Shown one piece after another: positions 1 to 48,993 of a stretch of DNA of 64,000 nucleotides. The notes under the pieces are model-generated. The model searched no databases. It was not told where the DNA came from and saw only the letters and a program-made list of their open reading frames with translations. Each line of letters begins with the position of its first letter. Position 1 is the stretch's first letter. The DNA comes from Tubulanus polymorphus (taxonomy: Eukaryota > Nemertea > Palaeonemertea > Tubulaniformes > Tubulanidae). The stretch lies in assembly GCF_964204645.1 (NCBI RefSeq), contig NC_134033.1, forward strand, positions 13,456,155 through 13,520,154. The letters are read 5' to 3'. The position numbers and the translations under genes are program-made.

Positions 1-3000
1 GTGTCTACCGTAGTTGATGTGTCAGTCGAGGATGAAGTAGACGAATCCGTTGGTGATGTCGTATCGGTACTCGCCGAGGTCGATGTGTCTACCGTAGTGG
101 AGCTGACAGTGGAGGATGAAGTAGACGAATCCGTTGGTGATGTCGTCTCGGTGCTGGCCGATGTGGATGTGTCTACCGTAGTTGATATGTCTGTCGAGGA
201 TGAAGTAGACGAATCCGTTGGTGATGTCGTCTCGATGCTCGCCGATGTCGATGTGTCTACCGTAGTTGATGTTTCAGTCGAGGATGAAGTAGACGAATCC
301 GTTGGTGATGTCGTCTCGGTGCTCGCCGATGTCGATGTGTCTACCGTAGTTGATGTGTCAGTCGAGGATGAAGTAGACGAATCCGTTGGTGATGTCGTAT
401 CGGTGCTCACCGAGGTCGATGTGTCTACCGTAGTTGATGTGTCAGTCGAGGATGAAGTAGATGAATCCGTTGGTGATGTCGTCTCAATGCTCGCCGATGT
501 CGATGTGTCTACCGTAGTTGATGTGTCAGTCGAGGATGAAGTAGACGAATCCGTTGGTGATGTCGTCTCGATGCTCGCCGATGTCGATGTGTCTACCGTA
601 GTTGATGTGTCAGTCGAGGATGAAGTAGACGAATACGTTGGTGATGTCGTCTCGGTGCTCGCCGATGTCGATGTGTCTACCGTAGTTGATATGTCAGTCG
701 AGAATATAGTAGACGAATCCGTTGGTGATGTCGTATCGGTGCTCACCGAGGTCGATGTGTCTATTGTAGTGGAGTTGTCAGTCGAGGACGAGGTAGACGA
801 ATCCGTTGTTAAGGTCGTATCGGTGCTCACCGAGGTCGATGTGTCTACCGTAGTGGATGTGTCAGTCGAGGATGAAGTAGACGAATCCGTTGGTGATGTC
901 GTATCTGTGCTCACCGAGGTCGATGTGTCTACCGTAGTTGATGTGTCAGTCGAGGATGAAGTAGACGAATCCGTTGGTGATGTCGTATCGGTACTCGCCG
1001 AGGTCGATGTGTCTACCGTAGTGGAGCTGACAGTGGAGGATGAAGTTGACGAATCGGTTGGTGATGTCGTCTCGGTGCTGGCCGATGTGGATGTGTCTAC
1101 CGTAGTTGATATGTCTGTCGAGGATGAAGTAGACGAATCCGTTGGTGATGTCGTATCGGTACTCGCCGAGGTCGATGTGTCTACCGTAGTGGAGCTGACA
1201 GTCGAGGATAAAGTAGACGAATCCGTTGGTGATGTCGTATCGGTACTCACCGAGGTCGATGTGTCTACCGTAGTTGAGCTGACAGTCGAGGATGAAGTAG
1301 ACGAATCCGTTGGTGATGTCGTCACGGTGCTCGCCGAGGTCGATGTGTCTACCGTAGTGGAGGTGTCAGTCGAGGACGAAGTCGACGAATCCGTTGTAAA
1401 GGTCGTATCGGTGCTCACCGAGGTCGATGTGTCTATCGTAGTGGAGGTGTCAGTCGAGGATGAAGTCGACGAATCCGTTGGTGATGTCGTATCGGTACTC
1501 GCCGAGGTCGATGTGTCTACCGTAGTGGAGCTGACAGTCGAGGATAAAGTAGACGAATCCGTTGGTGATGTCGTGTCGGTGCTCGCCGAGGTCGATGTGT
1601 CTACCGTAGTGGAGGTGTCAGTCGAGGACGAAGTAGTCGAATCCGTTGGTGTTGTCGTTTCGGTGCTCACCGAGGTCGATGTGTCTACCGTAGTGGATGT
1701 GTCAGTCGAGGATGAAGTAGACGAATCCGTTGGTGATGTCGTATCGGTGCTCACCGAGGTCGATGTGTCTACCGTAGTTGATGTGTCAGTCGAGGATGAA
1801 GTAGACGAATCCGTTGGTGATGTCGTATCGGTACTCGCCGAGGTCGATGTGTCTACCGTAGTGGAGCTGACAGTGGAGGATGAAGTAGACGAATCCGTTG
1901 GTGATGTCGTCTCGATGCTCACCGATGTCGATGTGTCTACCGTAGTTGATGTGTCAGTCGAGGATGAAGTAGACGAATCCGTTGGTGATGTCGTCTCGGT
2001 GCTCGCCGATGTGGATGTGTCTACCGTAGTTGATATGTCTGTCGAGGATGAAGTAGACGAATCCGTTGGTGATGTCGTATCGATGCTCGCCGATGTCGAT
2101 GTGTCTACCGTAGTTGATGTGTCAGTCGAGGATGAAGTAGACGAATCCGTTGGCGATGTCGTCTCGGTGCTCGCCGATGTCGATGTGTCTACCGTAGTTG
2201 ATGTGTCAGTCGAGGATGAAGTAGACGAATCCGTTGGCGATGTCGTATCGGTGCTCGCCGAGGTCGATGTGTCTACCGTAGTTGATGTGTCAGTCGAGGA
2301 TGAAGTAGACGAATCCGTTGGTGATGTCGTATCGGTACTCGCCGAGGTCGATGTGTCTACCGTAGTGGAGCTGACAGTCGAGGATGAAGTCGACGAATCC
2401 GTCGGTGATGTCGTATCGGTACTCGCCGAGGTCGATGTATCTACCGTAGTGGAGCTGACAGTCGAGGATGAAGTCGACGAATCCGTCGGTGTTGTCGTCT
2501 CGGTGCTCACCGAGGTCGATGTGTCTACCGTAGTTGATGTGTCAGTAGAGGATGAAGTAGACGAATCCGTTGTAAAGGTCGTATCGGTGCTCACCGATGT
2601 CGATGTATCTATCGTAGTGGAGGTGTCAGTCGAGGATGAAGTAGACGAATCCGTTGGTGATGTCGTATCGGTGCTCACCGAGGTCGATATGTCTACCGTA
2701 GTGGAGCTGACAGTGGAGGATGAAGTAGACGAATCCGTTGGTGATGTCGTCTCGGTGCTCGACGAGGTCGATGTGTCTACCGTAGTTGAGCTGACAGTCG
2801 AGGACGAAGTAGACAAATCCGTTGTAAAGGTCGTATCGGTGCTCACCGATGTCGATGTATCTATCGTAGTTGATGTGTCAGTCGAGGATGAAGTAGACGA
2901 ATCCGTTGGTGATGTCGTATCGGTACTCACCGAGGTCGATGTGTCTACCGTAGTGGAGCTGACAGTGGAGGATGAAGTAGACGAATCCGTTGGTGATGTC

Positions 3001-6000
3001 GTTACGGTGCTCGCCGAGGTCGAAGTGTCTACCGTAGTTGATGTGTCAGTTGAGGATGAAGTTGACGAATCCGTTGATGATGTCGTCTCGGTGTTCGCCG
3101 ATGTCGATATGTCTACCGTAGAGGCGCTGACAGTCGAGGATGAAGTAGACGAATCCGTTGGTGATGTCGTCTCGGTGCTCGCCGATGTCGATGTGTCTAC
3201 CGTAGTTGATATGTCTGTCGAGGATGAAGTAGACGAATCCGTTGGTGATGTCGTCACGGTGCTCGCCGATGTCGATGTATCTACCGGAGAGCCGCTGACA
3301 GTCGAGGACGAAGTAGACGAATCCGTTGGTGATGTCGTCACGGTGCTCGCCGATGTCGATGTATCTACCGGAGAGGCGCTGACAGTCGAGGATGAAGTAG
3401 ACGAATCCGTTGGTGATGTCGTCTCGGTGCTCACCGATGTGGATGTGTCTACCGTAGTTGATGTGTCAGTCGAGGATGAAGTAGACGAATCCGTTGGTGA
3501 TGTCGTATCGGTGCTCACCGAGGTCGATGTGTCTATCGTAGTGGAGGTGTCAGTCGAGGACGAGGTAGACGAATCCGTTGTTAAGGTCGTATCGGTGCTC
3601 GCCGAGGTCGATGTGTCTACCGTAGTGGAGGTGTCAGTCGAAGACGAAGTAGACGAATCGGTTGGTGATGTCGTCTCGGTGCTCGTCGATGTTGATTTGT
3701 CCACCGTAGTGGAGGTGTCAGTCGAGGACGAAGTAGACGAATCCGTTGGTGATGTCGTCTCGGTGCTCGACGAGGTCGATGTGTCTACCGTAGTTGAGCT
3801 GACAGTCGAGGACGAAGTAGACAAATCCGTTGTTGAGGTCGTATCGGTACTCACCGAGGTCGATGTGTCTACCGTAGTGGAGGTGTCAGTCGAGGACAAA
3901 GTAGACGAATCCGTTGGTGATGTCGTCTCGGTGCTCGCCGACGTTGATGTGTCCACCGTAGTGGAGGTGTCAGTCGAGGACGAAGTAGACGAATCCGTTG
4001 GTGATGTCGTCTCGGTGCTCGACGAGGTCGATGTGTCTACCGTAGTTGAGCTGACAGTCGAGGACGAAGTAGACAAATCCGTTGTTGAGGTCGTATCGGT
4101 ACTCACCGAGGTCGATGTGTCTTCCGTAGTGGAGCTGACAGTCGAGGATAAAGTAGACGAACCCGTTGGTGATGTCGTCACGGTGCTCGCCGAGGTCGAT
4201 GTGTCTACCGTAGTTGATGTGTCAGTCGAGGACGAAGTAGACGAATCCGTTGTAAAGGTCGTATCGGTGCTCACCGAGGTCGATGTGTCTACCGTAGTGG
4301 AGGTGTCAGTCGAGGATGAAGTAGACGAATCCGTTGGTGATGCCGTCACGGTACTCGCCGAGGTCGATGTGTCTACCGAAGAGGAGCTTACAGTCGAGGA
4401 TGAAGTCGACGAATCCGTTGGTGTTGTCGTCTCGGTACTCGCCGAGATCGATGTGTCTACCGTAGAGGAGCTTACAGTCGAGGATGAAGTAGACGAATCC
4501 GTTGGTGATATCGTATCGGTACTCGCCGAGGTCGATGTGTCTACCGTAGTGGAGCTGACAGTCGAGGATAAAGTAGACGAATCCGTTGGTGATGTCGTGT
4601 CGGTGCTCGCCGAGGTCGATGTGTCTACCGTAGTTGATGTGTCAGTCGAGGATGAAGTAGACGAATCCGTTGGTGATGTCGTATCTGTGCTCACCGAGGT
4701 CGATGTGTCTACCGTAGTTGATGTGTCAGTCGAGGATGAAGTAGACGAATCCGTTGGTGATGTCGTATCGGTACTCGCCGAGGTCGATGTGTCTACCGTA
4801 GTGGAGCTGACAGTGGAGGATGAAGTAGACGAATCCGTTGGTGATGTCGTCTCGGTGCTCGCCGATGTCGATGTGTCTACCGTAGTTGATGTGTCAGTCG
4901 AGGATGAAGTAGACGAATCCGTTGGAGATGTCGTCTCGGTGCTCGCCGATGTCGATGTGTCTACCGTAGTTGATGTGTCAGTCGAGGATGAAGTAGACGA
5001 ATCCGTTGGTGATGTCGTATCGGTGCTCACCGAGGTCGATGTGTCTACCGTAGTTGATGTGTCAGTCGAGGATGAAGTAGACGAATCCGTTGGTGATGTC
5101 GTCTCAATGCTCGCCGATGTCGATGTGTCTACCGTAGTGGAGCTGACAGTGGAGGATGAAGTAGACGAATCCGTTGGTGATGTCGTCTCGATGCTCACCG
5201 ATGTCGATGTGTCTACCGTAGTTGATGTGTCAGTCGAGGATGAAGTAGACGAATCCGTTGGTGATGTCGTCTCGATGCTCGCCGATGTCGATGTGTCTAC
5301 CGTAGTTGATGTGTCAGTCGAGGATGAAGTAGACGAATACGTTGGTGATGTCGTCTCGGTGCTCGCCGATGTCGATGTGTCTACCGTAGTTGATATGTCA
5401 GTCGAGAATATAGTAGACGAATCCGTTGGTGATGTCGTATCGGTGCTCACCGAGGTCGATGTGTCTATTGTAGTGGAGTTGTCAGTCGAGGATGAAGTAG
5501 ACGAATCCGTTGGTGATGTCGTATCGGTGCTCGCCGAGGTCGATGTGTCTACCGTAGTTGATGTGTCAGTTGAGGATGAAGTAGACGAATCCGTTGGTGT
5601 TGTCGTTTCGGTGCTCACCGAGGTCGATGTGTCTACCGTAGTGGATGTGTCAGTCGAGGATGAAGTAGACGAATCCGTTGGTGATGTCGTATCTGTGCTC
5701 ACCGAGGTCGATGTGTCTACCGTAGTTGATGTGTCAGTCGAGGATGAAGTAGACGAATCCGTTGGTGATGTCGTATCGGTACTCGCCGAGGTCGATGTGT
5801 CTACCGTAGTGGAGCTGACAGTGGAGGATGAAGTTGACGAATCGGTTGGTGATGTCGTCTCGGTGCTGGCCGATGTGGATGTGTCTACCGTAGTTGATAT
5901 GTCTGTCGAGGATGAAGTCGACGAATCCGTTGGTGATGTCGTATCGGTACTCGCCGAGGTCGATGTGTCTACCGTAGTGGAGCTGACAGTCGAGGATAAA

Positions 6001-9000
6001 GTAGACGAATCCGTTGGTGATGTCGTATCGGTACTCACCGAGGTCGATGTGTCTACCGTAGTGGAGCTGACAGTCGAGGATGAAGTAGACGAATCCGTTG
6101 GTGATGTCGTCACGGTGCTCGCCGAGGTCGATGTGTCTACCGTAGTGGAGGTGTCAGTCGAGGACGAAGTCGACGAATCCGTTGTAAAGGTCGTATCGGT
6201 GCTCACCGAGGTCGATGTGTCTACCGTAGTTGATGTGTCTGTCGAGGATGAAGTAGACGAATCCGTTGGTGATGTCGTATCGGTGCTCACCGAGGTCGAT
6301 GTGTCTACCGTAGTTGATGTGTCAGTCGAGGATGAAGTAGACGAATCCGTTGGTGTTGTCGACTCGGTACTCACCGAGGTCGATGTGTCTACCGTAGTTG
6401 ATGTGTCAGTCGAGGATGAAGTAGACGAATCCGTTGGTGATGTCGTATCGGTGCTCACCGAGGTCGATGTGTCTATCGTAGTGGAGGTGTCAGTCGAGGA
6501 CGAGGTAGACGAATCCGTTGTTAAGGTCGTATCGGTGCTCACCGAGGTCGATGTGTCTAACGTAGTTGATGTGTCAGTTGAGGATGAAGTAGACGAATCC
6601 GTTGGTGATGTCGTCACGGTGCTCGCTGAGGTCGAAGTGTCTACCGTAGTTGATGTGTCAGTTGAGGATGAAGAAGACGAATCCGTTGGTGATGTCGTCA
6701 CGGTGCTCGCCGAGGTCGAAGTGTCTACCGTAGTTGATGTGTCAGTTGAGGACGAAGTAGACGAATCCGTTGGTGATGTCGTCTCGGTGCTCGCCGATGT
6801 TGATGTGTCCACCGTAGTGGAGGTGTCAGTCGAGGACGAAGTAGACGAATCCGTTGGTGATATCGTCTCGGTGCTCGACGAGGTCGATGTGTCTACCGTA
6901 GTTGAGCTGACAGTCGAGGACGAAGTAGACAAATCCGTTGTTGAGGTCGTATCGGTACTCACCGAGGTCGATGTGTCTTCCGTAGAGGAGCTTACAGTCG
7001 AGGATGAAGTAGACGAATCCGTTGGTGATATCGTATCGGTACTCGCCGAGGTCGATGTGTCTACCGTAGTGGAGCTGACAGTCGAGGATAAAGTAGACGA
7101 ATCCGTTGGTGATGTCGTGTCGGTGCTCGCCGAGGTCGATGTGTCTACCGTAGTTGATGTGTCAGTCGAGGATGAAGTAGACGAATCCGTTGGAGATGTC
7201 GTATCTGTGCTCACCGAGGTCGATGTGTCTACCGTAGTTGATGTGTCAGTCGAGGATGAAGTAGACGAATCCGTTGGTGATGTCGTATCGGTACTCGCCG
7301 AGGTCGATGTGTCTACCGTAGTGGAGCTGACAGTGGAGGATGAAGTAGACGAATCCGTTGGTGATGTCGTCTCGGTGCTGGCCGATGTGGATGTGTCTAC
7401 CGTAGTTGATATGTCTGTCGAGGATGAAGTTGACGAATCCGTTGGTGATGTCGTCTCGATGCTCGCCGATGTCGATGTGTCTACCGTAGTTGATGTGTCA
7501 GTCGAGGATGAAGTAGACGAATCCGTTGGTGATGTCGTCTCGGTGCTCGCCGATGTCGATGTGTCTACCGTAGTTGATGTGTCAGTCGAGGATGAAGTAG
7601 ACGAATCCGTTGGTGATGTCGTATCGGTGCTCACCGAGGTCGATGTGTCTACCGTAGTTGATGTGTCAGTCGAGGATGAAGTAGACGAATCCGTTGGTGA
7701 TGTCGTCTCAATGCTCGCCGATGTCGATGTGTCTACCGTAGTGGAGCTGACAGTGGAGGATGAAGTAGACGAATCCGTTGGTGATGTCGTCTCGATGCTC
7801 ACCGATGTCGATGTGTCTACCGTAGTTGATGTGTCAGTCGAGGATGAAGTAGACGAATCCGTTGGTGATGTCGTCTCGATGCTCGCCGATGTCGATGTGT
7901 CTACCGTAGTTGATGTGTCAGTCGAGGATGAAGTAGACGAATACGTTGGTGATGTCGTCTCGGTGCTCGCCGATGTCGATGTGTCTACCGTAGTTGATGT
8001 GTCAGTCGAGGATGAAGTAGACGAATCCGTTGGTGTTGTCGTCTCGGTACTCGCCGAGGTCGATGTGTCTACCGTAGAGAAGCTAACAGTCGAGGATGAA
8101 GTAGACGAATCCGTTGGTGATGTCGTGTCGGTACTCGCCGAGGTCGATGTGTCTACCGTAGTGGAGCTGACAGTGGAGGATGAAGTTGACGAATCCGTTG
8201 GTGATGTCGTCTCGGTGCTGGCCGATGTGGATGTGTCTACCGTAGTTGATATGTCTGTCGAGGATGAAGTAGACGAATCCGTTGGTGATGTCGTATCGGT
8301 ACTCGCCGAGGTCGATGTGTCTACCGTAGTGGAGCTGACAGTCGAGGATAAAGTAGACGAATCCGTTGGTGATGTCGTGTCGGTGCTCGCCGAGGTCGAT
8401 GTGTCTACCGTAGTGGAGGTGTCAGTCGAGGACGAAGTAGTCGAATCCGTTGGTGTTGTCGTTTCGGTGCTCACCGAGGTCGATGTGTCTACCGTAGTGG
8501 ATGTGTCAGTCGAGGTTGAAGTAGACGAATCCGTTGGTGATGTCGTATCGGTGCTCACCGAGGTCGATGTGTCTACCGTAGTTGATGTGTCAGTCGAGGA
8601 TGAAGTAGACGAATCCGTTGGTGATGTCGTATCGGTACTCGCCGAGGTCGATGTGTCTACCGTAGTGGAGCTGACAGTGGAGGATGAAGTAGACGAATCC
8701 GTTGGTGATGTCGTCTCGATGCTTACCGATGTCGATGTGTTTACCGTAGTTGATGTGTCAGTCGAGGATGAAGTAGACGAATCCGTTGGTGATGTCGTCT
8801 CGGTGCTCGCCGATGTGGATGTGTCTACCGTAGTTGATATGTCTGTCGAGGATGAAGTAGACGAATCCGTTGGTGATGTCGTCTCGATGCTCACCGATGT
8901 CGATGTGTCTACCGTAGTTGATGTGTCAGTCGAGGATGAAGTAGACGAATCCGTTGGTGATGTCGTCTCGGTGCTCGCCGATGTCGATGTGTCTACCGTA

Positions 9001-27000: not shown

Positions 27001-30000
27001 CTCACTGAGGTCGACGTGTCTACCGTAGTGGATGTGTCAGTCGAGGATGAAGTAGACGAATCCGTTGGTGATGTCGTATCGGTACTCGCCGAGGTCGATG
27101 TGTCTATCGTAGTTGAGCTGACAGTCGAGGATGTAGTCGACGAATCCGTTGGTGATGTCGTATCGGTACTCGCCGAGGTCGATGTGTCTACCGTAGTGGA
27201 GCTGACAGTCGAGGATGAAGTCGACGAATCCGTTGGTGTTGTCGTCTCGGTGCTCACCGATGTCGATGTGTCTACCGTAGTTGATGTGTCAGTCGAGGAT
27301 GAAGTAGACGAATCCGTTGGTGATGTCGTATCGGTACTCGCCGAGGTCGACGTGTCTACCGTAGTGGAGCTGACAGTCGAGGACGAAGTAGACGAATCCG
27401 TTGGTGATGTCGTCTCGGTGCTCACCGAGGTCGATGTGTCTACCGTAGTGGAGGTATCAGTCGAGGACGAAGTAGACGAATCCGTTGGTGATGTCGTCTC
27501 GGTGCTCACCGAGGTCGACGTGTCTACCGTAGTGGATGTGTCAGTCGAGGATGAAGTAGACGAATCCGTTGGTGATGTCGTATCGGTACTCGCCGAGGTC
27601 AATGTGTCTATCGTAGTTGAGCTGACAGTCGAGGATGTAGTCGACGAATCCGTTGGTGATGTCGTATCGGTACTCGCCGAGGTCGATGTGTCTACCGTAG
27701 TGGAGCTGACAGTCGAGGATGAAGTCGACGAATCCGTTGGTGTTGTCGTCTCGGTGCTCACCGATGTCGATGTGTCTACTGTAGTTGATGTGACAGTCGA
27801 GGACGAAGTAGACGAATCCGTTGGTGATGTCGTCTCGGTGCTCGCGGATGTTGATGTGTCCACCGTGGTGGATGTGTCAGTCGGGGACGAAGTAAACGAA
27901 TCCGTTGGTGATGTCGTCTCGGTGCTCGCCGATGTTGATGTGTCCACCGTAGTGGAAGTGTCAGTCGAGGACGATGTAGACGAATCCGTTGGTGATGTCG
28001 TCTCGGTGCTCGCCGATGTTGATGTGTCCACCGTAGTGGAGGTATCAGTCGAGGACGAAGTAGACGAATCCGTTGCTGATGTCTTCTCGGTGCTCGACGA
28101 GGTCGATGTATCTACCGTAGAGGCGCTGACAGTCGAGGATGAAGTAGACGAATCCGTTGGTGATGTCGTATCGGTACTCGCCGAGGACGATGTGTCTACC
28201 GTAGTGGAGCTGACAGTCGAGGATGAAGTAGACGAATCCGTTGGTGATGTCGTGTCGGTGCTCGCCGAGGTCGATGTGTCTACCGTAGTGGTGGTGTCAG
28301 TCGAAGACGAAGTAGACGAATCCGTTGGTGTTGTCGTCTCGGTGCTCACCGAGGTCGATGTGTCTACCGTAGAGGCGCTGACAGTCGAGGATGTAGTCGA
28401 CGAATCCGTTGGTGTTGTCGTATCGGTACTCGCCGAGGTCGATGTGTCTACCGTAGAGGAGCTTACAGTCGAGGATGAAGTCGACGAATCCGTTGGTGTT
28501 GTCGTCTCAGTGCTCACCGAGGTCGATGTGTCTACCGTAGTTGATGTGTCAGTCGAGGATGAAGTAGACGAATCCGTTGGTGATGTCGTCTCGGTGCTAG
28601 CCGACGTCGATGTGTCTACCGTAGTGGAGCTGACAGTCGAGGATGAAGTAGACGAATCCGTTGGTGATGTCGTATCGGTGCTCGCAGAGGTCGATGTGTC
28701 TACCTTAGTGGAGGTGTCAGTCGAGGACGAAGTAGACGAATCCGTTGGTGATGTCGTCTCGGTACTCGCCGATGTTGATGTCTCCACCGTAGTGGAGGTT
28801 TCAGTCGAGGACGAAGTAGACGAATCCGTTGTTGAGGTCGTATCGGTACTCACCGAGGTCGATGTGTCTACCGTAGTGGAGCTGACAGTCGGGGACGAAG
28901 TAGACGAATCAGTTGCTGATGTCGTCTCGATGCTCGACGATGTAGATGTGTCTACCGTAGTAGAGGTGTCAGTCGTGGACGAAGTAGACGAATCCGTTGG
29001 TGATGTCGTATCGGTGCTCGCCGAGGTCGATGTGTCTACCGTAGTGGAGGTGTCAGTCGAAGATAAAGTAGACGAATCCGTTGCTGATGTCGTCTCGGTG
29101 CTCACCGATGTCGATGTGTCTACCGTAGTGGTGTCAGTCGAGGACGAAGTAGACGAATCGGTTGGTGATGTCGTCACGGTGCTCGACGAGGTAGATGTGT
29201 CTACCGAATTTGAGCTGACAGTCGAGGACGTAGTAGACAAATCCGTTGTTAAGGTCGTATCGGTACTCGCCGAGGTCGATGTGTCTACCGTAGTGGAGCT
29301 GACAGTCGAGGATAAAGTCGACGAATCCGTTGGTGTTGTCGTCTCGGTGCTCACCGAGGTCGAAGTGTCTACCGTAGTGGAGGTGTCAGTCGAGGATGAA
29401 GTAGACGAATCCGTTGGTGATGTCGTCTCGGCGCTCGCCGATGTTGATGTGTCCACCGTAGTGGAGGTGTCAGTCGAGGACGAAGTAGACGAATCCGTTG
29501 CTGATTTCGTCTCGGTGCTCGACGAGGTCGATGTGTCTACAGTAGTTGAGCTGACAGTCGAGGACAAAGTAGACGAATCCGTCGGTGATGTCGTGTCGGT
29601 GTTCGCCGAGGTCGATGTGTCTACCGTAGTGGAGCTGACAGTCGAGGATGTAGTCGACGAATCCGTTGGTGTTGTCGTATCGGTACTAGCCGAGGTCGAT
29701 GTGTCTACCGTAGAGGAGCTTACAGTCGAGGATGAAGTAGACGAATCCGTTGATGATGTCGTATCGGTACTCGCCGAGGTCGATGTGTCTACCGTAGTGG
29801 AGCTGACAGTCGAGGACGAAGTAGACGAAGCCGTTGGTGTTGTCGTCTCGGTGCTCACCGAGGTCGATGTGTCTACCGTAGTGGAGGTATCAGTCGAGGA
29901 CGAAGTAGACGAATCCGTTGGTGTTGTCGTCTCGGTGCTCACCGTGGTCGATGTGTCTACCGTAGTGGATGTGTCAGTCGTGGATGAAGTAGACGAATCC

Positions 30001-33000
30001 GTTGGTGATGTCGTATCGGTACTCGCCGAGGTCGATGTGTCTACTGTAGTGGAGCTGACAGTCGAGGATGAAGTCGACGAATCCGTTGGTGTTGTCGTCT
30101 CGGTGCTCACCGAGGTCGATGTGTCTACCGTAGTTGATGTGTCAGTCGAAGACGAAGTAGACGAATCTGTTGGTGATGTCGTATCGGTACTCGCCGAGGT
30201 CGATGTGTCTACCGTAGTGGAGCTGACAGTCGAGGACGAAGTAGACGAATCCGTTGGTGATGTCGTATCGGTACTCGCCGAGGTCGATGTGTCTACCGTA
30301 GTGGAGCTGACAGTCGAGGATGAAGTCGACGAATCCGTTGGTGTTGTCGTCTCGGTGCTCACCGAGGTCGATGTGTCTACCGTAGTTGATGTGTCAGTCG
30401 AGGATGAAGTAGACGAATCCGTTGGTGATGTCGTCTCGGTGCTAGCCGATGTCGATGTGTCTACCGTAGTGGAGCTGACAGTCGAGGATGAAGTAGACGA
30501 ATCCGTTGGTGATGTCGTCCAGGTGCTCGCCGAGGTCGATGTGTCTACCGTAGTGGAGGTGTCAGTCGAGGACGAAGTCGACGAATCCGTTGTTAAGGTC
30601 GTATCGGTGCTCACCGAGGTCGATGTGTCTACCGTAGTTGATGTGTCAGTCGAGGATGAAGTAGACGAATCCGTTGGTGATGTCGTCTCGGTGCTCGCCG
30701 ATGTCGATGTGTCTACCGTAGAGGCGCTGACAGTCGAGGATGAAGTAGACGAATCCGTTGGTGATGTCGTCTCAGTGCTCACCGAGGTCGATGTGTCTAT
30801 CGTAGTGGAGCTGACAGTCGAGGATGAAGTAGACGAATCCGTTGTTAAGGTCGTATCGGTGCTCGCCGAGGTCGATGTGTCTACCGTAGTTGATGTGTCA
30901 GTCGAGGATGAAGTAGACGAATCCGTTGGTGATGTCGTCTCGGTGCTAGCCGATGTCGATGTGTCTACCGTAGTGGAGCTGACAGTCGAGGATGAAGTAG
31001 ACGAATCCGTTGGTGATGTCGTCCAGGTGCTCGCCGAGGTCGATGTGTCTACCGTAGTGGAGGTGTCAGTCGAGGACGAAGTCGACGAATCCGTTGGTGA
31101 TGTCGTCTCGGTGCTCACCGAGGTCGATGTGTCTACCGTAGTTGATGTGTCAGTCGAGGATGAAGTAGACGAATCCGTTGGTGATGTCGTATCGGTACTC
31201 GCCGAGGTCGATGTGTCTACCGTAGTGGAGCTGACAGTCGAGGACGAAGTAGACGAATCCGTTGGTGATGTCGTCTCGGTGCTCACCGAGGTCGATGTGT
31301 CTACCGTAGTGGAGGTATCAGTCGAGGACGAAGTAGACGAATCCGTTGGTGATGTCGTCTCGGTGCTCACCGAGGTCGACGTGTCTACCGTAGTGGATGT
31401 GTCAGTCGAGGATGAAGTAGACGAATCCGTTGGTGATGTCGTATCGGTACTCGCCGAGGTCGATGTGTCTATCGTAGTTGAGCTGACAGTCGAGGATGTA
31501 GTCGACGAATCCGTTGGTGATGTCGTATCGGTACTCGCCGAGGTCGATGTGTCTACCGTAGTGGAACTGACAGTCGAGGATGAAGTCGACGAATCCGTTG
31601 GTGTTGTCGTCTCGGTGCTCACCGATGTCGATGTGTCTACTGTAGTTGATGTGACAGTCGAGGACGAAGTAGACGAATCCGTTGGTGATGTCGTCTCGGT
31701 GCTCGCGGATGTTGATGTGTCCACCGTGGTGGATGTGTCAGTCGGGGACGAAGTAAACGAATCCGTTGGTGATGTCGTCTCGGTGCTCGCCGATGTTGAT
31801 GTGTCCACCGTAGTGGAAGTGTCAGTCGAGGACGATGTAGACGAATCCGTTGGTGATGTCGTCTCGGTGCTCGCCGATGTTGATGTGTCCACCGTAGTGG
31901 AGGTGTCAGTCGAGGACGAAGTAGACGAATCCGTTGCTGATGTCTTCTCGGTGCTCGACGAGGTCGATGTATCTACCGTAGAGGCGCTGACAGTCGAGGA
32001 TGAAGTAGACGAATCCGTTGGTGATGTCGTATCGGTACTCGCCGAGGACGATGTGTCTACCGTAGTGGAGCTGACAGTCGAGGATGAAGTAGACGAATCC
32101 GTTGGTGATGTCGTGTCGGTGCTCGCCGAGGTCGATGTGTCTACCGTAGTGGTGGTGTCAGTCGAAGACGAAGTAGACGAATCCGTTGGTGTTGTCGTCT
32201 CGGTGCTCACCGAGGTCGATGTGTCTACCGTAGAGGCGCTGACAGTCGAGGATGTAGTCGACGAATCCGTTGGTGTTGTCGTATCGGTACTCGCCGAGGT
32301 CGATGTGTCTACCGTAGAGGAGCTTACAGTCGAGGATGAAGTCGACGAATCCGTTGGTGTTGTCGTCTCAGTGCTCACCGAGGTCGATGTGTCTACCGTA
32401 GTTGATGTGTCAGTCGAGGATGAAGTAGACGAATCCGTTGGTGATGTCGTCTCGGTGCTGGCCGACGTCGATGTGTCTACCGTAGTGGAGCTGACAGTCG
32501 AGGATGAAGTAGACGAATCCGTTGGTGATGTCGTATCGGTGCTCGCAGAGGTCGATGTGTCTACCTTAGTGGAGGTGTCAGTCGAGGACGAAGTAGACGA
32601 ATCCGTTGATGATGTCGTCTCGGTACTCGCCGATGTTGATGTGTCCACCGTAGTGGAGGTTTCAGTCGAGGACGAAGTAGACGAATCCGTTGTTGAGGTC
32701 GTATCGGTACTCACCGAGGTCGATGTGTCTACCGTAGTGGAGCTGACAGTCGGGGACGAAGTAGACGAATCAGTTGCTGATGTCGTCTCGATGCTCGACG
32801 ATGTAGATGTGTCTACCGTAGTAGAGGTGTCAGTCGAGGACGAAGTAGACGAATCCGTTGGTGATGTCGTATCGGTGCTCGCCGAGGTCGATGTGTCTAC
32901 CGTAGTGGAGGTGTCAGTCGAAGATGAAGTAGACGAATCCGTTGCTGATGTCGTCTCGGTGCTCACCGATGTCGATGTGTCTACCGTAGTGGTGTCAGTC

Positions 33001-36000
33001 GAGGACGAAGTAGACGAATCGGTTGGTGATGTCGTCACGGTGCTCGACGAGGTAGATGTGTCTACCGAATTTGAGCTGACAGTCGAGGACGTAGTAGACA
33101 AATCCGTTGTTAAGGTCGTATCGGTACTCGCCGAGGTCGATGTGTCTACCGTAGTGGAGCTGACAGTCGAGGATAAAGTCGACGAATCCGTTGGTGTTGT
33201 CGTCTCGGTGCTCACCGAGGTCGAAGTGTCTACCGTAGTGGAGGTGTCAGTCGAGGATGAAGTAGACGAATCCGTTGGTGATGTCGTCTCGGCGCTCGCC
33301 GATGTTGATGTGTCCACCGTAGTGGAGGTGTCAGTCGAGGACGAAGTAGACGAATCCGTTGCTGATTTCGTCTCGGTGCTCGACGAGGTCGATGTGTCTA
33401 CAGTAGTTGAGCTGACAGTCGAGGACAAAGTAGACGAATCCGTCGGTGATGTCGTGTCGGTGTTCGCCGAGGTCGATGTGTCTACCGTAGTGGAGCTGAC
33501 AGTCGAGGATGTAGTCGACGAATCCGTTGGTGTTGTCGTATCGGTACTAGCCGAGGTCGATGTGTCTACCGTAGAGGAGCTTACAGTCGAGGATGAAGTC
33601 GACGAATCCGTTGGTGTTGTCGTCTCGGTGGTCACCGAGGTCGATGTGTCTACCGTAGTTGATGTGTCAGTCGAGGATGAAGTAGACGAATCCGTTGGTG
33701 ATGTCGTATCGGTACTCGCCGAGGTCGATGTGTCTACCGTAGTGGAGCTGACAGTCGAGGACGAAGTAGACGAAGCCGTTGGTGTTGTCGTCTCGGTGCT
33801 CACCGAGGTCGATGTGTCTACCGTAGTGGAGGTATCAGTCGAGGACGAAGTAGACGAATCCGTTGGTGTTGTCGTCTCGGTGCTCACCGTGGTCGATGTG
33901 TCTACCGTAGTGGATGTGTCAGTCGTGGATGAAGTAGACGAATCCGTTGGTGATGTCGTATCGGTACTCGCCGAGGTCGATGTGTCTATCGTAGTTGAGC
34001 TGACAGTCGAGGATGTACTCGACGAATCCGTTGGTGATGTCGTATCGGTACTCGCCGAGGTCGATGTGTCTACCGTAGTGGAGCTGACAGTCGAGGATGA
34101 AGTAGACGAATCCGTTGGTGATGTCGTCTCAGTGCTCACCGAGGTCGATGTGTCTACCGTAGTTGATGTGTCAGTCGAGGATGAAGTAGACGAATCCGTT
34201 GGTGATGTCGTCTCGGTGCTAGCCGATGTCGATGTGTCTACCGTAGTGGAGCTGACAGTCGAGGATGAAGTAGACGAATCCGTTGGTGATGTCGTCCAGG
34301 TGCTCGCCGAGGTCGATGTGTCTACCGTAGTGGAGGTGTCAGTCGAGGACGAAGTCGACAAATCCGTTGTTAAGGTCGTATCGGTGCTCACCGACGTCGA
34401 TGTGTCTATCGTAGTGGAGGTGTCAGTCGAGGACGAGGTAGACGAATCCGTTGTAAAGGTCGTATCGGTGCTCGCCGAGGTCGATGTGTCTATCGTAGTG
34501 GAGCTTACAGTCGAGGATGAAGTCGACGAATCCGTTGGTGTTGTCGTCTCAGTGCTCACCGAGGTCGATGTGTCTACCGTAGTTGATGTGTCAGTCGAGG
34601 ATGAAGTAGACAAATCCGTTGGTGATGTCGTCTCGGTGCTAGCCGATGTCGATGTGTCTACCGTAGTGGTGGTGTCAGTCGAAGACGAAGTAGACGAATC
34701 CGTTGGTGTTGTCGTCTCGGTGCTCACTGAGGTCGATGTGTCTACCGTAGAGGCGCTGACAGTCGAGGATGTAGTCGACGAATCCGTTGGTGTTGTCGTA
34801 TCGGTACTCGCCGAGGTCGATGTGTCTACCGTAGAGGAGCTTACAGTCGAGGATGAAGTCGACGAATCCGTTGGTGTTGTCGTCTCAGTGCTCACCGAGG
34901 TCGATGTGTCTACCGTAGTTGATGTGTCAGTCGAGGATGAAGTAGACAAATCCGTTGGTGATGTCGTCTCGGTGCTAGCCGATGTCGATGTGTCTACCGT
35001 AGTGGAGCTGACAGTCGAGGATGAAGTAGACGAATCCGTTGGTGATGTCGTATCGGTGCTCGCAGAGGTCGATGTGTCTACCTTAGTGGAGGTGTCAGTC
35101 GAGGACGAAGTAGACGAATCCGTTGGTGATGTCGTCTCGGTACTCGCCGATGTTGATGTGTCCACCGTAGTGGAGGTTTCAGTCGAGGACGAAGTAGACG
35201 AATCCGTTGTTGAGGTCGTATCGGTACTCACCGAGGTCGATGTGTCTACCGTAGTGGAGCTGACAGTCGGGGACGAAGTAGACGAATCCGTTGCTGATGT
35301 CGTCTCGATGCTCGACGATGTAGATGTGTCTACCGTAGTAGAGGTGTCAGTCGTGGACGAAGTAGACGAATCCGTTGGTGATGTCGTATCGGTGCTCGCC
35401 GAGGTCGATGTGTCTACCGTAGTGGAGGTGTCAGTCGAAGATGAAGTAGACGAATCCGTTGCTGATGTCGTCTCGGTGCTCACCGATGTCGATGTGTCTA
35501 CCGTAGTGGTGTCAGTCGAGGACGAAGTAGACGAATCGGTTGGTGATGTCGTCACGGTGCTCGACGAGGTAGATGTGTCTACCGAATTTGAGCTGACAGT
35601 CGAGGACGTAGTAGACAAATCCGTTGTTAAGGTCGTATCGGTACTCGCCGAGGTCGATGTGTCTACCGTAGTGGAGCTGACAATCGAGGATAAAGTCGAC
35701 GAATCCGTTGGTGTTGTCGTCTCGGTGCTCACCGAGGTCGATGTGTCTATCGTAGTGGATGTGTCTGTCGAGGATGAAGTAGACGAATCCGTTGGTGATG
35801 TCGTATCGGTACTCGCCGAGGTCGATGTGTCTACCGTAGAGGAGCTTACAGTCGAGGATGAAGTCGACGAATGCGTTGGTGTTGTCGTCTCAGTGCTCAC
35901 CGAGGTCGATGTGTCTACCGTAGTTGATGTGTCAGTCGAGGATGAAGTAGACGAATCCGTTGGTGATGTCGTCTCGATGCTAGCCGATGTCGATGTGTCT

Positions 36001-39000
36001 ACTGTAGTGGAGCTGACAGTCGAGGATGAAATAGACGAATCCGTTGGTGATGTCGTATCGGTGCTCGCAGAGGTCGATGTGTCTACCGTAGTGGAGGTGT
36101 CAGTCGAGGACGAAGTAGACGAATCCGTTGGTGATGTCGTCTCGATACTCGCCGATGTTGATGTGTCCACCGTAGTGGAGGTTTCAGTCGAGGACGAAGT
36201 AGACGAATCCGTTGTTGAGGTCGTATCGGTACTCACCGAGGTCGATGTGTCTACCGTAGACGAGCTGACAGTCGAGGATGAAGTAGACGAATCCGTTGGT
36301 GATGTCGTATCGGTACTCGCCGAGGTCGATGTGTCTACCGTAGTGGAGCTGACAGTCGAGGATGAAGTAGACGAATCCGTTGGTGATGTCGTATCGGTAC
36401 TCGCCGAGGTCGATGTGTCTACCGTAGAGGAGCTTACAGTCGAGGATGAAGTCGACGAATCCGTTGGTGTTGTCGTCTCGGTGCTTAGCGAGGTCGATGT
36501 GTCTACCGTAGTTGATGTGTCAGTCGAGGATGAAGTAGACGAATCCGTTGGTGATGTCGTATCGGTGCTCGCCGAGGTCGATGTGTCTACCGTAGTGGAG
36601 GTGTCAGTCGGGGACGAAGTCGACGATACCGTTGGTGATGTCGTCTCGATGCTCGACGATGTAGATGTGTCTACCGTAGTAGAGGTGTCAGTCGTGGACG
36701 AAGTAGACGAATCCGTTGGTGATGTCGTCTCGATGCTCGACGATGTAGATGTCTCTACCGTAGTAGAGGTGTCAGTCGTGGACGAAGTAGACGAATCCGT
36801 TGGTGATGTCGTATCGGTACTCGCCGAGGTCGATGTGTCTACCGTAGTGGAGCTGACAGTCGAGGATGAAGTCGATGAATCCATCGGTGTTGTCGTCTCG
36901 GTGCTCGCCGAGGTCGATGTGTCTACCGTAGTGGAGCTGACAGTCGAGGAAGAAGTAGACGAATCCGTTGTTAAGGTCGTATCGGTACTCGCCGAGGTCG
37001 ATGTGTCTACCGTAGTGGAGCTGACAGTCGAGGAAGAAGTAGACGAATCCGTTGTTAAGGTCGTATCGGTACTCGCCGAGGTCGATGTGTCTACCGTAGT
37101 GGAGCTGACCGTCGAGGAAGAAGTAGAAGAATCCGTTTTTAAGGTCGTATCGGTACTCGCCGAGGTCGATGTGTCTACCGTAGTGGAGCTGACAGTCGTG
37201 GATGAAGTCGACGAATCCGTTGGTGTTGTCGTCTCGGTGCTCACCGAGGTCGATATGTCTACCGTAGTGGAGGTGTCAGTCGAGGACGAAGTAGACGAAT
37301 CCGTTGGTGATGTCGTCTCGGTGCTCGACGAGGTCGATGTGTCTACCGTAGTGGATATGTCAGTCGAGGAAGAAGTAGACGAATCCGTTGTTAAGGTCGT
37401 ATCGGTACTCGCCGAGGTCGATGTGTCTACCGTAGTGGAGCTGACAGTCGAGGATGAAGTCGACGAATCCGTTGGTGTTGACGTCTCGGTGCTCACCGAG
37501 GTCGATGTGTCTACCGTAGTGGAGCTGACAGTCGTGGATGAAGTCGACGAATCCGTTGGTGTTGTCGTCTCGGTGCTCACCGAGGTCGATATGTCTACCG
37601 TAGTGGAGGTGTCAGTCGAGGACGAAGTAGACGAATCCGTTGGTGATGTCGTCTCGGTGCTCGACGAGGTCGATGTGTCTACCGTAGTGGATATGTCAGT
37701 CGAGGAAGAAGTAGACGAATCCGTTGTTAAGGTCGTATCGGTACTCGCCGAGGTCGATGTGTCTACCGTAGTGGAGCTGACAGTCGAGGATGAAGTCGAC
37801 GAATCCGTTGGTGTTGACGTCTCGGTGCTCACCGAGGTCGATGTGTCTATCGCAGTGGATGTGTCAGTCGAGGATGCAGTAGACGAATCTGTTGGTGATG
37901 TCGTATCGGTACTCGCCGAGGTCGATGTGTCTACCGTAGTGGAGCTGACAGTCGAGGATGAAGTCGACGAATCCGTTGGTGTTGTCGTCGCGGTGCTCAC
38001 CGAGGTCGATGTGTCTACCGTAGTTGATGTGTCAGTCGAGGACGAAGTAGACGAATCCGTTGGTGATGTCGTATCGGTACTCGCCGAGGTCGATGTGTCT
38101 ACCGTATTGGAGCTGACAGTCGAGGACGAAGTAGACGAATCCGTTGGTGATGTCGTCTCGGTGCTCACCGAGGTCGATGTGTCTACCGTAGTGGAGGTAT
38201 CAGTCGAGGACGAAGTAGACGAATCCGTTGGTGATGTCGTCTCGGTGCTCACCGAGGTCGATGTGTCTACCGTAGTGGAGCTGACAGTCGAGGATGTAGT
38301 CGACGAATCCGTTGGTGATGTCGTATCGGTACTCGCCGAGGTCGATGTGTCTACCGTAGTGGAGCTGACAGTCGAGGATGAAGTCGACGAATCCGTTGGT
38401 GTTGTCGTCTCGGTGCTCACCGATGTCGATGTGTCTACCGTAGTTGATGTGACAGTCGAGGACGAAGTAGACGAATCCGTTGGTGATGTCGTCTCGGTGC
38501 TCACCGAGGTCGATGTGTCTACCGTAGTGGAGGTATCAGTCGAGGACGAAGTAGACGAATCCGTTGGTGTTGTCGTCTCGGTGCTCACCGTGGTCGATGT
38601 GTCTATCGTAGTTGATGTGTCAGTCGAGGATGCAGTAGACGAATCCGTTGGTGATGTCGTATCGGTACTCGCCGAGGTCGATGTGTCTACCGTAGTGGAG
38701 CTGACAGTCGAGGACGAAGTAGACGAATCCGTTGGTGATGTCGTCTCGGTGCTCACCGAGGTCGATGTGTCTACCGTAGTGGAGGTATCAGTCGAGGACG
38801 AAGTAGACGAATCCGTTGGTGATGTCGTCTCGGTGCTCACCGAGGTCGACGTGTCTACCGTAGTGGATGTGTCAGTCGAGGATGAAGTAGACGAATCCGT
38901 TGGTGATGTCGTATCGGTACTCGCCGATGTCGATGTGTCTACCGTAGTTGAGCTGACAGTCGAGGATGTAGTCGACGAATCCGTTGGTGATGTCGTATCG

Positions 39001-42000
39001 GTACCCGCCGAGGTCGATGTGTCTACCGTAGTGGAGCTGACAGTCGAGGATGAAGTCGACGAATCCGTTGGTGTTGTCGTCTCGGTGCTCACCGATGTCG
39101 ATGTGTCTACCGTAGTTGATGTGTCAGTCGAGGATGAAGTAGACGAATCCGTTGGTGATGTCGTATCGGTACTCGCCGAGGTCGATGTGTCTACCGTAGT
39201 GGAGCTGACAGTCGAGGATGAAGTCGACGAATCCGTTGGTGTTGTCGTCTCGGTGCTCACCGAGGTCGATGTGTCTACCGTAGTTGATGTGTCAGTCGAG
39301 GATGAAGTAGACGAATCCGTTGGTGATGTCGTATCGGAACTCGCCGAGGTCGATGTGTCTACCGTAGTGGAGCTGACAGTCGAGGACGAAGTAGACGAAT
39401 CCGTTGGTGATGTCGTCTCGGTGCTAACCGAGGTCGATGTGTCTACCGTAGTGGAGGTATCAGTCGAGGACGAAGTAGACGAATCCGTTGGTGATGTCGT
39501 CTCGGTGCTCACCGAGGTCGACGTGTCTAACGTAGTGGATGTGTCAGTCGAGGATGAAGTAGACGAATCCGTTGGTGATGTCGTATCGGTACTCGCCGAG
39601 GTCGATGTGTCTACCGTAGTGGGGCTGACAGTCGAGGACGAAGTAGACGAATCCGTTGGTGATGTCGTCTCGGTGCTCACCGAGGTCGATGTGTCTACCG
39701 TAGTGGAGGTATCAGTCGAGGACGAAGTAGACGAATCCGTTGGTGTTGTCGTCTCGGTGCTCACCGTGGTCGATGTGTCTATCGTAGTTGATGTGTCAGT
39801 CGAGGATGCAGTAGACGAATCCATTGGTGATGTCGTATCGGTACTCGCCGAGGTCGATGTGTCTACCGTAGTGGAGCTGACAGTCGAGGACGAAGTAGAC
39901 GAATCCGTTGGTGATGTCGTCTCGGTGCTCACCGAGGTCGATGTGTCTACCGTAGTGGAGGTATCAGTCGAGGACGAAGTAGACGAATCCGTTGGTGATG
40001 TCGTCTCGGTGCTCACCGAGGTCGACGTGTCTACCGTAGTGGATGTGTCAGTCGAGGATGAAGTAGACGAATCCGTTGGTGATGTCGTATCGGTACTCGC
40101 CGAGGTCGATGTGTCTATCGTAGTTGAGCTGACAGTCGAGGATGTAGTCGACGAATCCGTTGGTGATGTCGTATCGGTACCCACCGAGGTCGATGTGTCT
40201 ACCGTAGTGGAGCTGACAGTCGAGGATGAAGTCGACGAATCCGTTGGTGTTGTCGTCTCGGTGCTCACCGATGTCGATGTGTCTACCGTAGTTGATGTGT
40301 CAGTCGAGGATGAAGTAGACGAATCCGTTGGTGATGTCGTATCGGTACTCGCCGAGGTCGATGTGTCTACCGTAGTGGAGCTGACAGTCGAGGATGAAGT
40401 CGACGAATCCGTTGGTGTTGTCGTCTCGGTGCTCACCGAGGTCGATGTGTCTACCGTAGTTGATGTGTCAGTCGAGGATGAAGTAGACGAATCCGTTGGT
40501 GATGTCGTATCGGTACTCGCCGAGGTCGATGTGTCTACCGTAGTGGAGCTGACAGTCGAGGACGAAGTAGACGAATCCGTTGGTGATGTCGTCTCGGTGC
40601 TCACCGAGGTCGATGTGTCTTCCGTAGTGGAGGTATCAGTCGAGGACGAAGTAGACGAATCCGTTGGTGATGTCGTCTCGGTGCTCACCGAGGTCGACGT
40701 GTCTACCGTAGTGGATGTGTCAGTCGAGGATGAAGTAGACGAATCCGTTGGTGATGTCGTATCGGTACTCGCCGAGGTCGATGTGTCTATCGTAGTTGAG
40801 CTGACAGTCGAGGATGTAGTCGACGAATCCGTTGGTGATGTCGTATCGGTACTCGCCGAGGTCGATGTGTCTACCGTAGTGGAGCTGACAGTCGAGGATG
40901 AAGTCGACGAATCCGTTGGTGTTGTCGTCTCGGTGCTCACCAATGTCGATGTGTCTACCGTAGTTGATGTGTCAGTCGAGGATGAAGTAGACGAATCAGT
41001 TGGTGTTGTCGTATCGGTACTCGCCGAGGTCGATGTGTCTACCGTAGTGGAGCTGACAGTCGAGGACAAAGTAGACGAATCCGTTGGTGATGTCGTCTCG
41101 GTGCTCACCGAGGTCGATGTGTCTACCGTAGTGGAGGTATCAGTCGAGGACGAAGTAGACGAATCCGTTGGTGATGTCGTCTCGGTGCTCACCGAGGTCG
41201 ACGTGTCTACCGTAGTGGATGTGTCAGTCGAGGATGAAGTAGACGAATCCGTTGGTGATGTCGTATCGGTACTCGCCGAGGTCGATGTGTCTATCGTAGT
41301 TGAGCTGACAGTCGAGGATGTAGTCGACGAATCCGTTGGTGATGTCGTATCGGTACTCGCCGAGGTCGATGTGTCTACCGTAGTGGAGCTGACAGTCGAG
41401 GATGAAGTCGACGAATCCGTTGGTGTTGTCGTCTCGGTGCTCACCGATGTCGATGTGTCTACCGTAGTTGATGTGACAGTCGAGGACGAAGTAGACGAAT
41501 CCGTTGGTGATGTCGTCTCGGTGCTCGCGGATGTTGATGTGTCCACCGTGGTGGAGGTGTCAGTCGGGGACGAAGTAAACGAATCCGTTGGTGATGTCGT
41601 CTCGGTGCTCGCCGATGTTGATGTGTCTACCGTAGTGGAGGTATCAGTCGAGGACGAAGTAGACGAATCCGTTGGTGTTGTCGTCTCGGTGCTCACCGTG
41701 GTCGATGTGTCTACCGTAGTGGATGTGTCAGTCGTGGATGAAGTAGACGAATCCGTTGGTGACGTCGTATCGGTACTCGCCGAGGTCGATGTGTCTACCG
41801 TAGTGGAGCTGACAGTCGAGGATGAAGTCGAAGAATCCGTTGGTGATGTCGTATCGGTACTCGCCGAGGTCGATGTGTCTACCGTAGTTGATGTGTCAGT
41901 CGAGGATGAAGTAGACGAATCCGTTGGTGATGTCGACTCGATGCTCGCCGAAGTCGATGTGTCTACCGTAGTTGAGCTGACAGTCGAGGATGAAGTCGAC

Positions 42001-44303: not shown

Positions 44304-46130
<1,827 letters not shown>

Positions 46131-48214: not shown

Positions 48215-48993
48215 CTATATTGTATTCGTATCCGCTTCATCCGTCTCCAGGCGAAACAGCCCTCCAGGTCTAGTTGGCATAATTCTGGGTCTCTTAATTT
48301 TGAACTGAAAACAAAATATGAATATAGAAACATAGAGAACGAGACCATCGTCAGGTGTCAACAAATAATGTATCATACCTGTTCCTTTCTATCCACCGAA
48401 GAAGATTCCACCCCACCAAACAGAGTATCGAAATAGTTATACATATCGGAATCGGCGTCATCGTCGATTTCACGGGGTAACGAAGGTGAAGGTCGTCGTG
48501 TTTGGCGTGACGATGCCATAGAGTACCACGAAAAACGACTAAACGACATCCGGCCCATATCGCGTTCCAGCGATAAACTGCTTGCATCCGTATTGACATG
48601 CTTTGAAAAATAGAAGGATAAAAACGGACGTGTATCTTTATGGCTGGTATTAACAGCTCAGATAAGCACATATAGATTACGCACTGGAGCCAAGTGCCAC
48701 AAAAGGCATCGACAAAATTACTCAAAACTGAATCGAAATACATGTATATCTAATTACAAAATTTACACACCAACGGCAGATTGTAACGACCTGTAGTGGA
48801 AAGTTGAGGTCTGGGAATTCTTGTTTCTTCGTTGATTTGTCTCCAGAATAATGCTTCCACGGAAAGTGGATCCCGATGAAGGTTACTAAAACAAAACCGA
48901 TGAATGGGTTATTTGTAGAAAACATTTTTAAGAAACCTTGCTATTAAAGTAGAAAGATGGTCACCTGGATTGTTGTCGTTTCTTCCTACGTCG
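48215..48993 (-). other. Cytoplasmic tail of mucin A (exons to 48965, 48885-48771, 48600-48379, 48304-48215)
   Basis: About 150 residues after the helix. A basic start (RRRKKRQQS) is followed by a polar middle, then an Arg/Ser/Pro patch (SSRQTRRPSPSLP), an acidic run (EIDDDADSD) next to MYNYFDTLF, and a basic stretch FKIKRPRIMPTRPGG before the end. RRPS fits a basophilic kinase site and the acidic Ser/Asp run fits casein kinase 2; both are inference. The acceptor at 48601-48605 (caaag) is the weakest junction, but it is in phase and preceded by a pyrimidine-rich tract. Confidence 0.8.

What the first reader, a model, noticed from the sequence alone, without database searches (positions are those of the whole stretch)
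1..42278. A single uninterrupted coding exon of at least 42.3 kb
From a signal-peptide ATG the minus-strand mucin frame runs 14,092 codons to the window edge with no stop, frameshift or required intron. All length changes that I found are multiples of three, and the other two minus frames hit a stop in nearly every 84-base unit, so any uncorrected indel would have ended the frame quickly. From general knowledge, the large central exons of vertebrate mucins such as MUC16 are about 20 kb, so this exon may rank among the largest in animals. The true length of the array could be even greater, or misassembled.
Basis: partly seen in the sequence, partly recalled or inferred. Interest (0 to 1): 0.85.

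Follow-up and report, generated by a model that had tools for sequence, protein, structure and literature searches.

The report
Giant membrane mucin with 70-kb exon
An animal genome carries two neighbouring genes for enormous, probably sugar-coated cell-surface proteins, the larger predicted to be read from one unbroken 70,000-letter coding block, about as large as the biggest reported for human mucins.

Summary
Gene A's first coding exon is 69,775 bp (G000:C9:13428658-13498432), about 829 units of a 28-residue Ser/Thr repeat, with no stop and no phase shift. Eight small exons follow, giving a predicted 23,648-aa single-pass membrane protein: signal-peptide-like head, mucin array, SEA-like domain, EGF-like domain, transmembrane helix, cytoplasmic tail. 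The array at the window's right belongs to a tandem paralogue, gene B (first exon 38,623 bp, about 458 units, 13,264 aa), whose tail is 97% identical. Phase, substitution and splice-site tests favour uninterrupted translation; no transcripts or reads were available. The closest known kind is the tethered mucins MUC3A/MUC3B/MUC12/MUC17. A 2026 preprint gives 23,080 aa for the longest human MUC12 haplotype, so gene A is level with it or slightly longer, not in a class of its own. The SEA and EGF matches fall below Pfam's cut-offs. The same repeat also occurs at three other places in this genome, once beside EGF_CA, VWD and weak NIDO matches on another contig, so the cassette has probably moved between gene frameworks.

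The parts
1..42278 (-). Gene A, first coding exon, the part inside the window; the whole exon is window -27496..42278 (69,775 bp), continuing left of the window to the donor AA|GTTAGT and eight small exons ending at window -29475
   Evidence: 0 stops; frame followed in fetched flank; gene model with in-frame splice junctions; open frame reported by the genome tool
42186..42278 (-). Gene A start codon and signal-peptide-like head (about 31 residues)
   Evidence: Translation; head of gene B aligns to it; 61% identity over 68 of 70 residues in the genome search. The hydrophobic core is judged by eye: gene A's did not pass my 19-residue threshold of 1.3, gene B's did at 1.8; no signal-peptide predictor was run
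1..42140 (-). 84-bp / 28-residue Ser/Thr array of gene A, the part inside the window: 502 whole units of about 829
   Evidence: TRF, segmentation, phase test
50184..64000 (-). Gene B, first coding exon, the 3' part inside the window; the whole exon is window 50184..88806 (38,623 bp, about 458 units)
49981..50102 (-). Gene B exon 2 (start of the SEA-like domain)
   Evidence: Splice sites and frame; SEA match E 0.014-0.033, below cut-off
49822..49883 (-). Gene B exon 3 (SEA-like domain)
49558..49748 (-). Gene B exon 4 (rest of the SEA-like domain, begins at the NGSV motif)
49279..49474 (-). Gene B exon 5 (cysteine-rich, EGF-like)
   Evidence: EGF_alliinase E 2.9e-5 at 24.8 bits against a cut-off of 25, EGF E 0.058 below cut-off
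48965..49138 (-). Gene B exon 6 (end of EGF-like part, transmembrane helix, start of cytoplasmic tail)
   Evidence: mean hydropathy 3.28 over 19 residues
48771..48885 (-). Gene B exon 7 (cytoplasmic tail)
48379..48600 (-). Gene B exon 8 (cytoplasmic tail)
48215..48304 (-). Gene B exon 9 (cytoplasmic tail and stop codon)

Best explanation
The frame is the first coding exon (69,775 bp) of a giant membrane-tethered mucin gene, the downstream member of a tandem pair. From the sequence: a signal-peptide-like head; about 829 in-frame 28-residue units, with 17,035 Ser/Thr in the first 23,240 residues, no cysteine in the array, and 2,880 Asp/Glu against 49 Lys/Arg; then eight small predicted exons for a SEA-like domain, an EGF-like domain, one transmembrane helix and a cytoplasmic tail; 23,648 aa in all. 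Inferred: the array is densely O-glycosylated and stands out from an epithelial surface as an acidic brush (contour length near 6 micrometres at a recalled 0.25 nm per residue); the SEA-like domain may be cleaved at NGSV, so the outer part is held non-covalently and can be shed under strain; EGF-like and cytoplasmic parts may signal. The array grew by unequal exchange and block duplication of whole 84-bp units, which keeps the frame, while selection removes frame-breaking copies.
For: Open frame through flank; one phase in 4,630 of 4,630 and 2,553 of 2,553 windows; 0 stops against 219 of 816 (A) and 118 of 414 (B) simulated units; substitutions by codon position 828/1406/2734 in A and 829/1061/1892 in B; complete in-frame gene models for both paralogues with matching exon lengths; tails identical at 379 of 392 residues; no frame-keeping pair of strong donor-like and acceptor-like sites inside the arrays, 0 of 480 and 0 of 203; composition and transmembrane segment; blocks duplicated inside the array.
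Against: No transcript, read or protein data. SEA match only E 0.014-0.033, below cut-off, and not listed when the whole tail is scanned; no SEA match in the PDB by sequence. EGF matches below cut-offs. The two other genes sharing the GSV motif gave no SEA match either. CpG test mixed: in A, C>T at codon position 2 is seen 302 times against 152 G>A at position 3, because of one Ala/Val codon (237 against 9); without it 65 against 143. Tail pN/pS rests on 8 synonymous and 13 nonsynonymous differences, too few to show constraint. 226 of 2,426 AGs in array A have as many upstream T as the weakest tail acceptor. One search's cruder column count shows 3 (A) and 6 (B) stop-type base changes; these sit in codons with other changes and make no stop.
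Confidence: 0.78

Rival explanations
1. The genomic frame is real, but the mature transcript is spliced inside the array or in several isoforms, so the 69.8 kb is not used as one exon.
For: 30 GTRAGT donor-like sites in array A and 12 in B; 226 of 2,426 AGs in A are as T-rich as the weakest tail acceptor; weaker GT and AG sites exist in compatible phases.
Against: 0 of 480 (A) and 0 of 203 (B) strong pairs within 60-5,000 nt keep the frame; mis-spliced products meet a stop after a median of 78 nt.
Confidence: 0.1
2. The array length is inflated or scrambled by assembly; the real exon is shorter or longer.
For: Internal exact repeats up to 1,969 bp and a block of about 4.7 kb at 98.5% or better. 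The read technology is unknown to me.
Against: No N in 264 kb; no phase shift in 4,630 windows; the longest exact repeat is short for accurate long reads; 408 distinct 84-nt units of 816.
Confidence: 0.08
3. It is a giant Ser/Thr protein of another role, such as a secreted slime, adhesive or cuticle protein, with the membrane tail cleaved off or skipped.
For: SEA and EGF matches are below cut-off; function is inferred from architecture alone.
Against: Transmembrane segment and tail exons kept in both paralogues.
Confidence: 0.12
4. It is a non-coding minisatellite with an accidentally open frame.
For: One antisense frame is also nearly open, 9 stops in 69.8 kb: openness alone can come from composition. 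I read it as following from the scarcity of Tyr, His and Gln.
Against: Stop avoidance, third-position bias and constant phase and in-frame junctions to head and tail exons.
Confidence: 0.01

Closest known systems
Human MUC12 (7q22 membrane mucin)
   Same: Membrane mucin whose tandem repeats lie in one giant PTS exon; longest haplotype protein 23,080 aa (PMC13345508, section 6); PTS exon 32,428 bp in T2T-CHM13 (PMC9578598, passage).
   Different: Gene A is 23,648 aa. No homology of the repeat was tested. The SEA domain here is below cut-off.
Human MUC3A/MUC3B tandem pair
   Same: Two neighbouring paralogous tethered mucins with nearly equal exon lengths except the single giant PTS exon: 15,873 bp and 39,267 bp (PMC9578598, passages); here 69,775 and 38,623 bp with equal lengths of all eight small exons.
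   Different: MUC3 genes have 12 exons (same passages), here nine coding exons, the head lying in the giant exon itself. The MUC3 cluster tails end in a class I PDZ motif (same passages); here both end in TNTI, which lacks Ser/Thr at position -2.
Mucin1-like and mucin4-like genes of the sea anemone Actinia tenebrosa
   Same: Mucins of a non-vertebrate with signal peptide, low-complexity PTS regions, SEA and transmembrane helix (PMC9080433, passages); the C4 gene with the same repeat has pieces like the MUC4 type.
   Different: The passages seen speak of no giant exon; the word exon does not occur in that paper's main text.

Membership tests
Mucins in general | Long Ser/Thr(/Pro)-rich tandem-repeat region in the ectodomain | tested here: met
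   17,035 Ser/Thr of 23,240 residues in A, 9,346 of 12,856 in B; proline 3.1-3.2%. O-glycosylation itself not testable
Membrane-tethered mucins (MUC3/MUC12/MUC17 kind) | Repeat region in one giant exon followed by small exons | tested here: met
   Gene models A and B; predicted, no RNA
Membrane-tethered mucins (MUC3/MUC12/MUC17 kind) | SEA domain | tested here: inconclusive
   Best Pfam match of the segment, but E 0.014-0.033 and 14.8-15.9 bits against a cut-off of 26.4; absent from the whole-tail scan and from PDB sequence search
Membrane-tethered mucins (MUC3/MUC12/MUC17 kind) | EGF-like domain next to SEA | tested here: inconclusive
   EGF_alliinase E 2.9e-5 (24.8 bits, cut-off 25), EGF E 0.058; betacellulin EGF E 0.95 in PDB
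Membrane-tethered mucins (MUC3/MUC12/MUC17 kind) | Single transmembrane helix and cytoplasmic tail | tested here: met
   One segment in the tail at mean hydropathy 3.28, followed by RRRKKR; by hydropathy only
Membrane-tethered mucins (MUC3/MUC12/MUC17 kind) | Class I PDZ motif at the C-terminus | tested here: not met
   Both tails end TNTI; motif named for the MUC3 cluster in PMC9578598. A feature of that cluster, so I file the genes with tethered mucins in general and not as orthologues of that cluster
Membrane-tethered mucins (MUC3/MUC12/MUC17 kind) | Autocatalytic cleavage in SEA and apical display | not testable with these tools
   NGSV present; that SEA domains cleave at such a GS is recalled
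Secreted gel-forming mucins | VWD and cysteine-rich flanks of the PTS region | tested here: not met
   No VWD match in tail or head of the pair; no cysteine in the array

The most novel reading that the evidence does not exclude
A non-vertebrate animal has built, in parallel with the human MUC3/MUC12 cluster, a tandem pair of giant tethered mucins, and gene A holds the longest coding exon yet described in an animal (69.8 kb). Its Ser/Thr cassette has moved between unrelated mucin frameworks on different chromosomes (SEA-like/EGF-like/TM here; beside EGF_CA, NIDO and VWD matches at C4:0.6 Mb; short arrays at C4:1.51 Mb; another Ser/Thr-rich frame at C9:2.52 Mb), so that being a mucin spreads as a repeat.
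Probability: 0.4. Interest if true: 0.75.

Novelty: new member of a known kind. Interest (0 to 1): 0.62.

Why it matters
It gives a complete predicted gene for one of the longest coding exons known in an animal, outside the human mucins, on a 16-Mb contig without gaps in the region. It makes questions testable: how a 71-kb coding message and a polypeptide of roughly 2.3 MDa before glycosylation are made and exported, how a tandem-repeat frame is kept over some 829 units, and how one repeat cassette came to sit in several gene frameworks of one genome. [quoted passage not shown] if this animal is an invertebrate and the SEA call holds, this pair, like the sea-anemone case (PMC9080433, passages), speaks against that.

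Tried and rejected
Rfam: 0 matches in window 42000-50400. tRNA scan of the window: 0 genes. NCBIfam: no match for two tail segments. PDB by sequence: betacellulin EGF at E 0.95 only, none for the SEA-like part at E up to 10. The CpG comparison as frame evidence was mixed. A first gene model had misplaced splice sites and was mended. Non-coding satellite was rejected on stop avoidance, phase and splice junctions. Papers: ten searches answered; I saw listings with abstract beginnings, and opened three papers (PMC13345508: section 6 and passages; PMC9578598 and PMC9080433: passages). Nothing seen there names a longer animal coding exon than human MUC12, but only open PMC papers are held and most listed ones were not opened, so this is no proof of absence.

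Full report
What was checked. The window is G000:C9:13456155-13520154 of a 267.8-Mb genome in 77 contigs. The minus-strand frame from the ATG at 42278 has no stop to the window edge, 14,092 codons. I fetched 80 kb to the left and 120 kb to the right and joined them to the window in a script; the 264 kb hold no N. The open frame then runs from 42287 to -27501, 23,263 codons from stop to stop, and a second one from 88860 to 50179, 12,894 codons. Asked with the head of gene A, the genome tool reports open frames of 23,262 and 12,893 aa at the same two places and no third match among 6 candidates.

Gene models. Shortly before the stop of each giant frame lies a donor (AA|GTTAGT). Eight further exons of 62 to 222 bp, with introns of 73 to 170 bp, keep the frame to a stop codon in both genes (a first attempt had misplaced splice sites). 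Splice sites were placed by eye and by comparing the two copies. Gene A: first exon 69,775 bp, CDS 70,947 bp, 23,648 aa. Gene B: first exon 38,623 bp, CDS 39,795 bp, 13,264 aa. The tails agree at 379 of 392 residues and at 96.4% of DNA with introns; a stretch upstream agrees at 85% with many gaps; downstream likeness ends after about 220 bp. A genome search with the tail protein gave 16 matches, all inside these two genes. I read this as a tandem duplication whose 3' parts were later homogenised (inference).

The array. TRF reports one 84-bp family through the window. My segmentation gives 829 units in A and 458 in B; 816 of 828 and 414 of 457 spacings are 28 residues. Since units were cut on the protein, spacings in threes are no independent test. 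The DNA-level test is the phase of 30-nt windows against the consensus: 4,630 of 4,630 in A and 2,553 of 2,553 in B are in one phase (4,581 and 2,373 at 80% match or better). Mean identity to the consensus is 92.8% in A and 89.1% in B, with 408 distinct of 816 and 252 distinct of 414 full-length units. Substitutions by codon position are 828/1406/2734 in A and 829/1061/1892 in B. If they ignored the frame, a mean of 219 of 816 units in A and 118 of 414 in B would carry a stop; none does. Counted by change type, 0 of 176 seen types make a stop in A (9 of 252 could, P 1.5e-5) and 0 of 150 in B (8 of 252 could, P 6e-4). The cruder column count lists 3 and 6 such base changes, which in their own codons make no stop. 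The CpG comparison is mixed: 302 against 152 in A goes against constraint because of one Ala/Val codon (237 against 9) and 65 against 143 without it; in B it is 162 against 309, or 83 against 309 without that codon. The other minus frames of A hold stops in 774 and 515 of 828 units. One antisense frame of A has only 9 stops, which I explain by the scarcity of Tyr, His and Gln in the protein.

One exon or several. Inside array A all 30 GTRAGT sites lie in phase 0, and the 219 T-rich YAG sites in phase 2 (189) or 1 (30): 0 of 480 pairs at 60 to 5,000 nt keep the frame, and mis-spliced products meet a stop after a median of 78 nt; in B 0 of 203 pairs keep it. Against this, 226 of 2,426 AGs in A are as T-rich upstream as the weakest tail acceptor, and weaker sites in compatible phases exist. 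No RNA data were available.

Assembly. The longest exact repeat inside A is 1,969 bp and the longest block at 98.5% or better is about 4.7 kb. Accurate long reads would resolve this, but I do not know which reads were used.

Protein. In A 17,035 of the first 23,240 residues are Ser or Thr; the array has no Cys, 2,880 acidic and 49 basic residues. Each tail has one strongly hydrophobic segment (3.28 over 19 residues) followed by RRRKKR. Gene B's head passes the same hydropathy threshold, gene A's does not; no signal-peptide predictor was run. The first tail domain matches Pfam SEA best, E 0.014 to 0.033 when given alone, below the cut-off, and SEA is not listed when the whole tail is scanned. 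The next domain is EGF-like just below cut-offs. NGSV lies where SEA domains self-cleave (recalled). Segments from two other places of this genome share GSV in an alignment of four, but I picked them by eye and they gave no SEA match.

The repeat elsewhere. A search with ten units gave 13 matches at C4:0.6 Mb, C4:1.51 Mb and C9:2.52 Mb, a lower bound, since very common words are skipped and 8 of 11 candidates were scored. At C4:595778-600542 an open frame of 1,588 codons holds 28 such units and a second Ser/Thr repeat. Downstream of it on the same strand lie pieces that match EGF_CA (E 3.8e-11), VWD (E 3.1e-6) and, below cut-off, NIDO (E 0.0013); a fourth piece gave no match. That they form one gene is inferred. 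C4 units match their best A unit at 95.5% and best B unit at 94.8% on average. So one cassette probably sits in at least two different mucin frameworks.

Comparison. Human MUC3B exon 2 is 39,267 bp and the MUC12 PTS exon 32,428 bp in T2T-CHM13 (PMC9578598, passages); the longest MUC12 haplotype protein is 23,080 aa in a 2026 preprint (PMC13345508, section 6), whose exon I infer to be near 68 kb. Gene A is level with this or slightly longer. I file it as a new member of a known kind, the giant tethered mucins, with the SEA domain unproven and without the PDZ motif of the MUC3 cluster (both tails end TNTI).

Limits. Function is inferred from architecture. The 0.25 nm per residue and the mean residue mass behind 2.3 MDa are recalled or assumed values.

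Noticed in passing
window 50184-64000, continuing to 88806: The second array is the 3' part of a second giant mucin gene (gene B) with its own head, tail and stop.
   Followed up: yes
L036, L026, L031 (G000:C4:589000-601795): The same 28-residue repeat (28 units) lies in an open frame of 1,588 codons next to EGF_CA and VWD matches and a weak NIDO match: a mucin framework unlike A and B sharing their cassette.
   Followed up: partly
L029, L030 (G000:C4:1507509-1515668): Two near-identical genes with short arrays of the same repeat after a segment with a GSV motif; no Pfam SEA match.
   Followed up: partly
L033-L035 (G000:C9:2522611-2533092): Arrays of the same repeat joined to a different Ser/Thr/Gly repeat.
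   Followed up: no
window 1-42278, plus strand: A plus-strand frame antisense to the array is nearly open, 2 stops in 42.3 kb, most likely because the protein hardly uses Tyr, His or Gln.
   Followed up: partly
window 44100-44290, minus strand: By eye a broken C-type-lectin-like piece upstream of gene A; Pfam gives no match for it. An intact-looking Lectin_C match (E 5.6e-7) lies upstream of gene B at 90469-90843 and a Kringle match (E 7.4e-16) at 96371-96745, outside the window.
   Followed up: partly
window 45268-45519: AT microsatellite of 126 dinucleotide copies between the two genes.
   Followed up: no
window coordinates 155355-156770 and 139236-139652 (right flank, outside the window): A reverse-transcriptase frame (RVT_1 E 7.3e-20) and a diacylglycerol-kinase exon (E 1.1e-7).
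   Followed up: no
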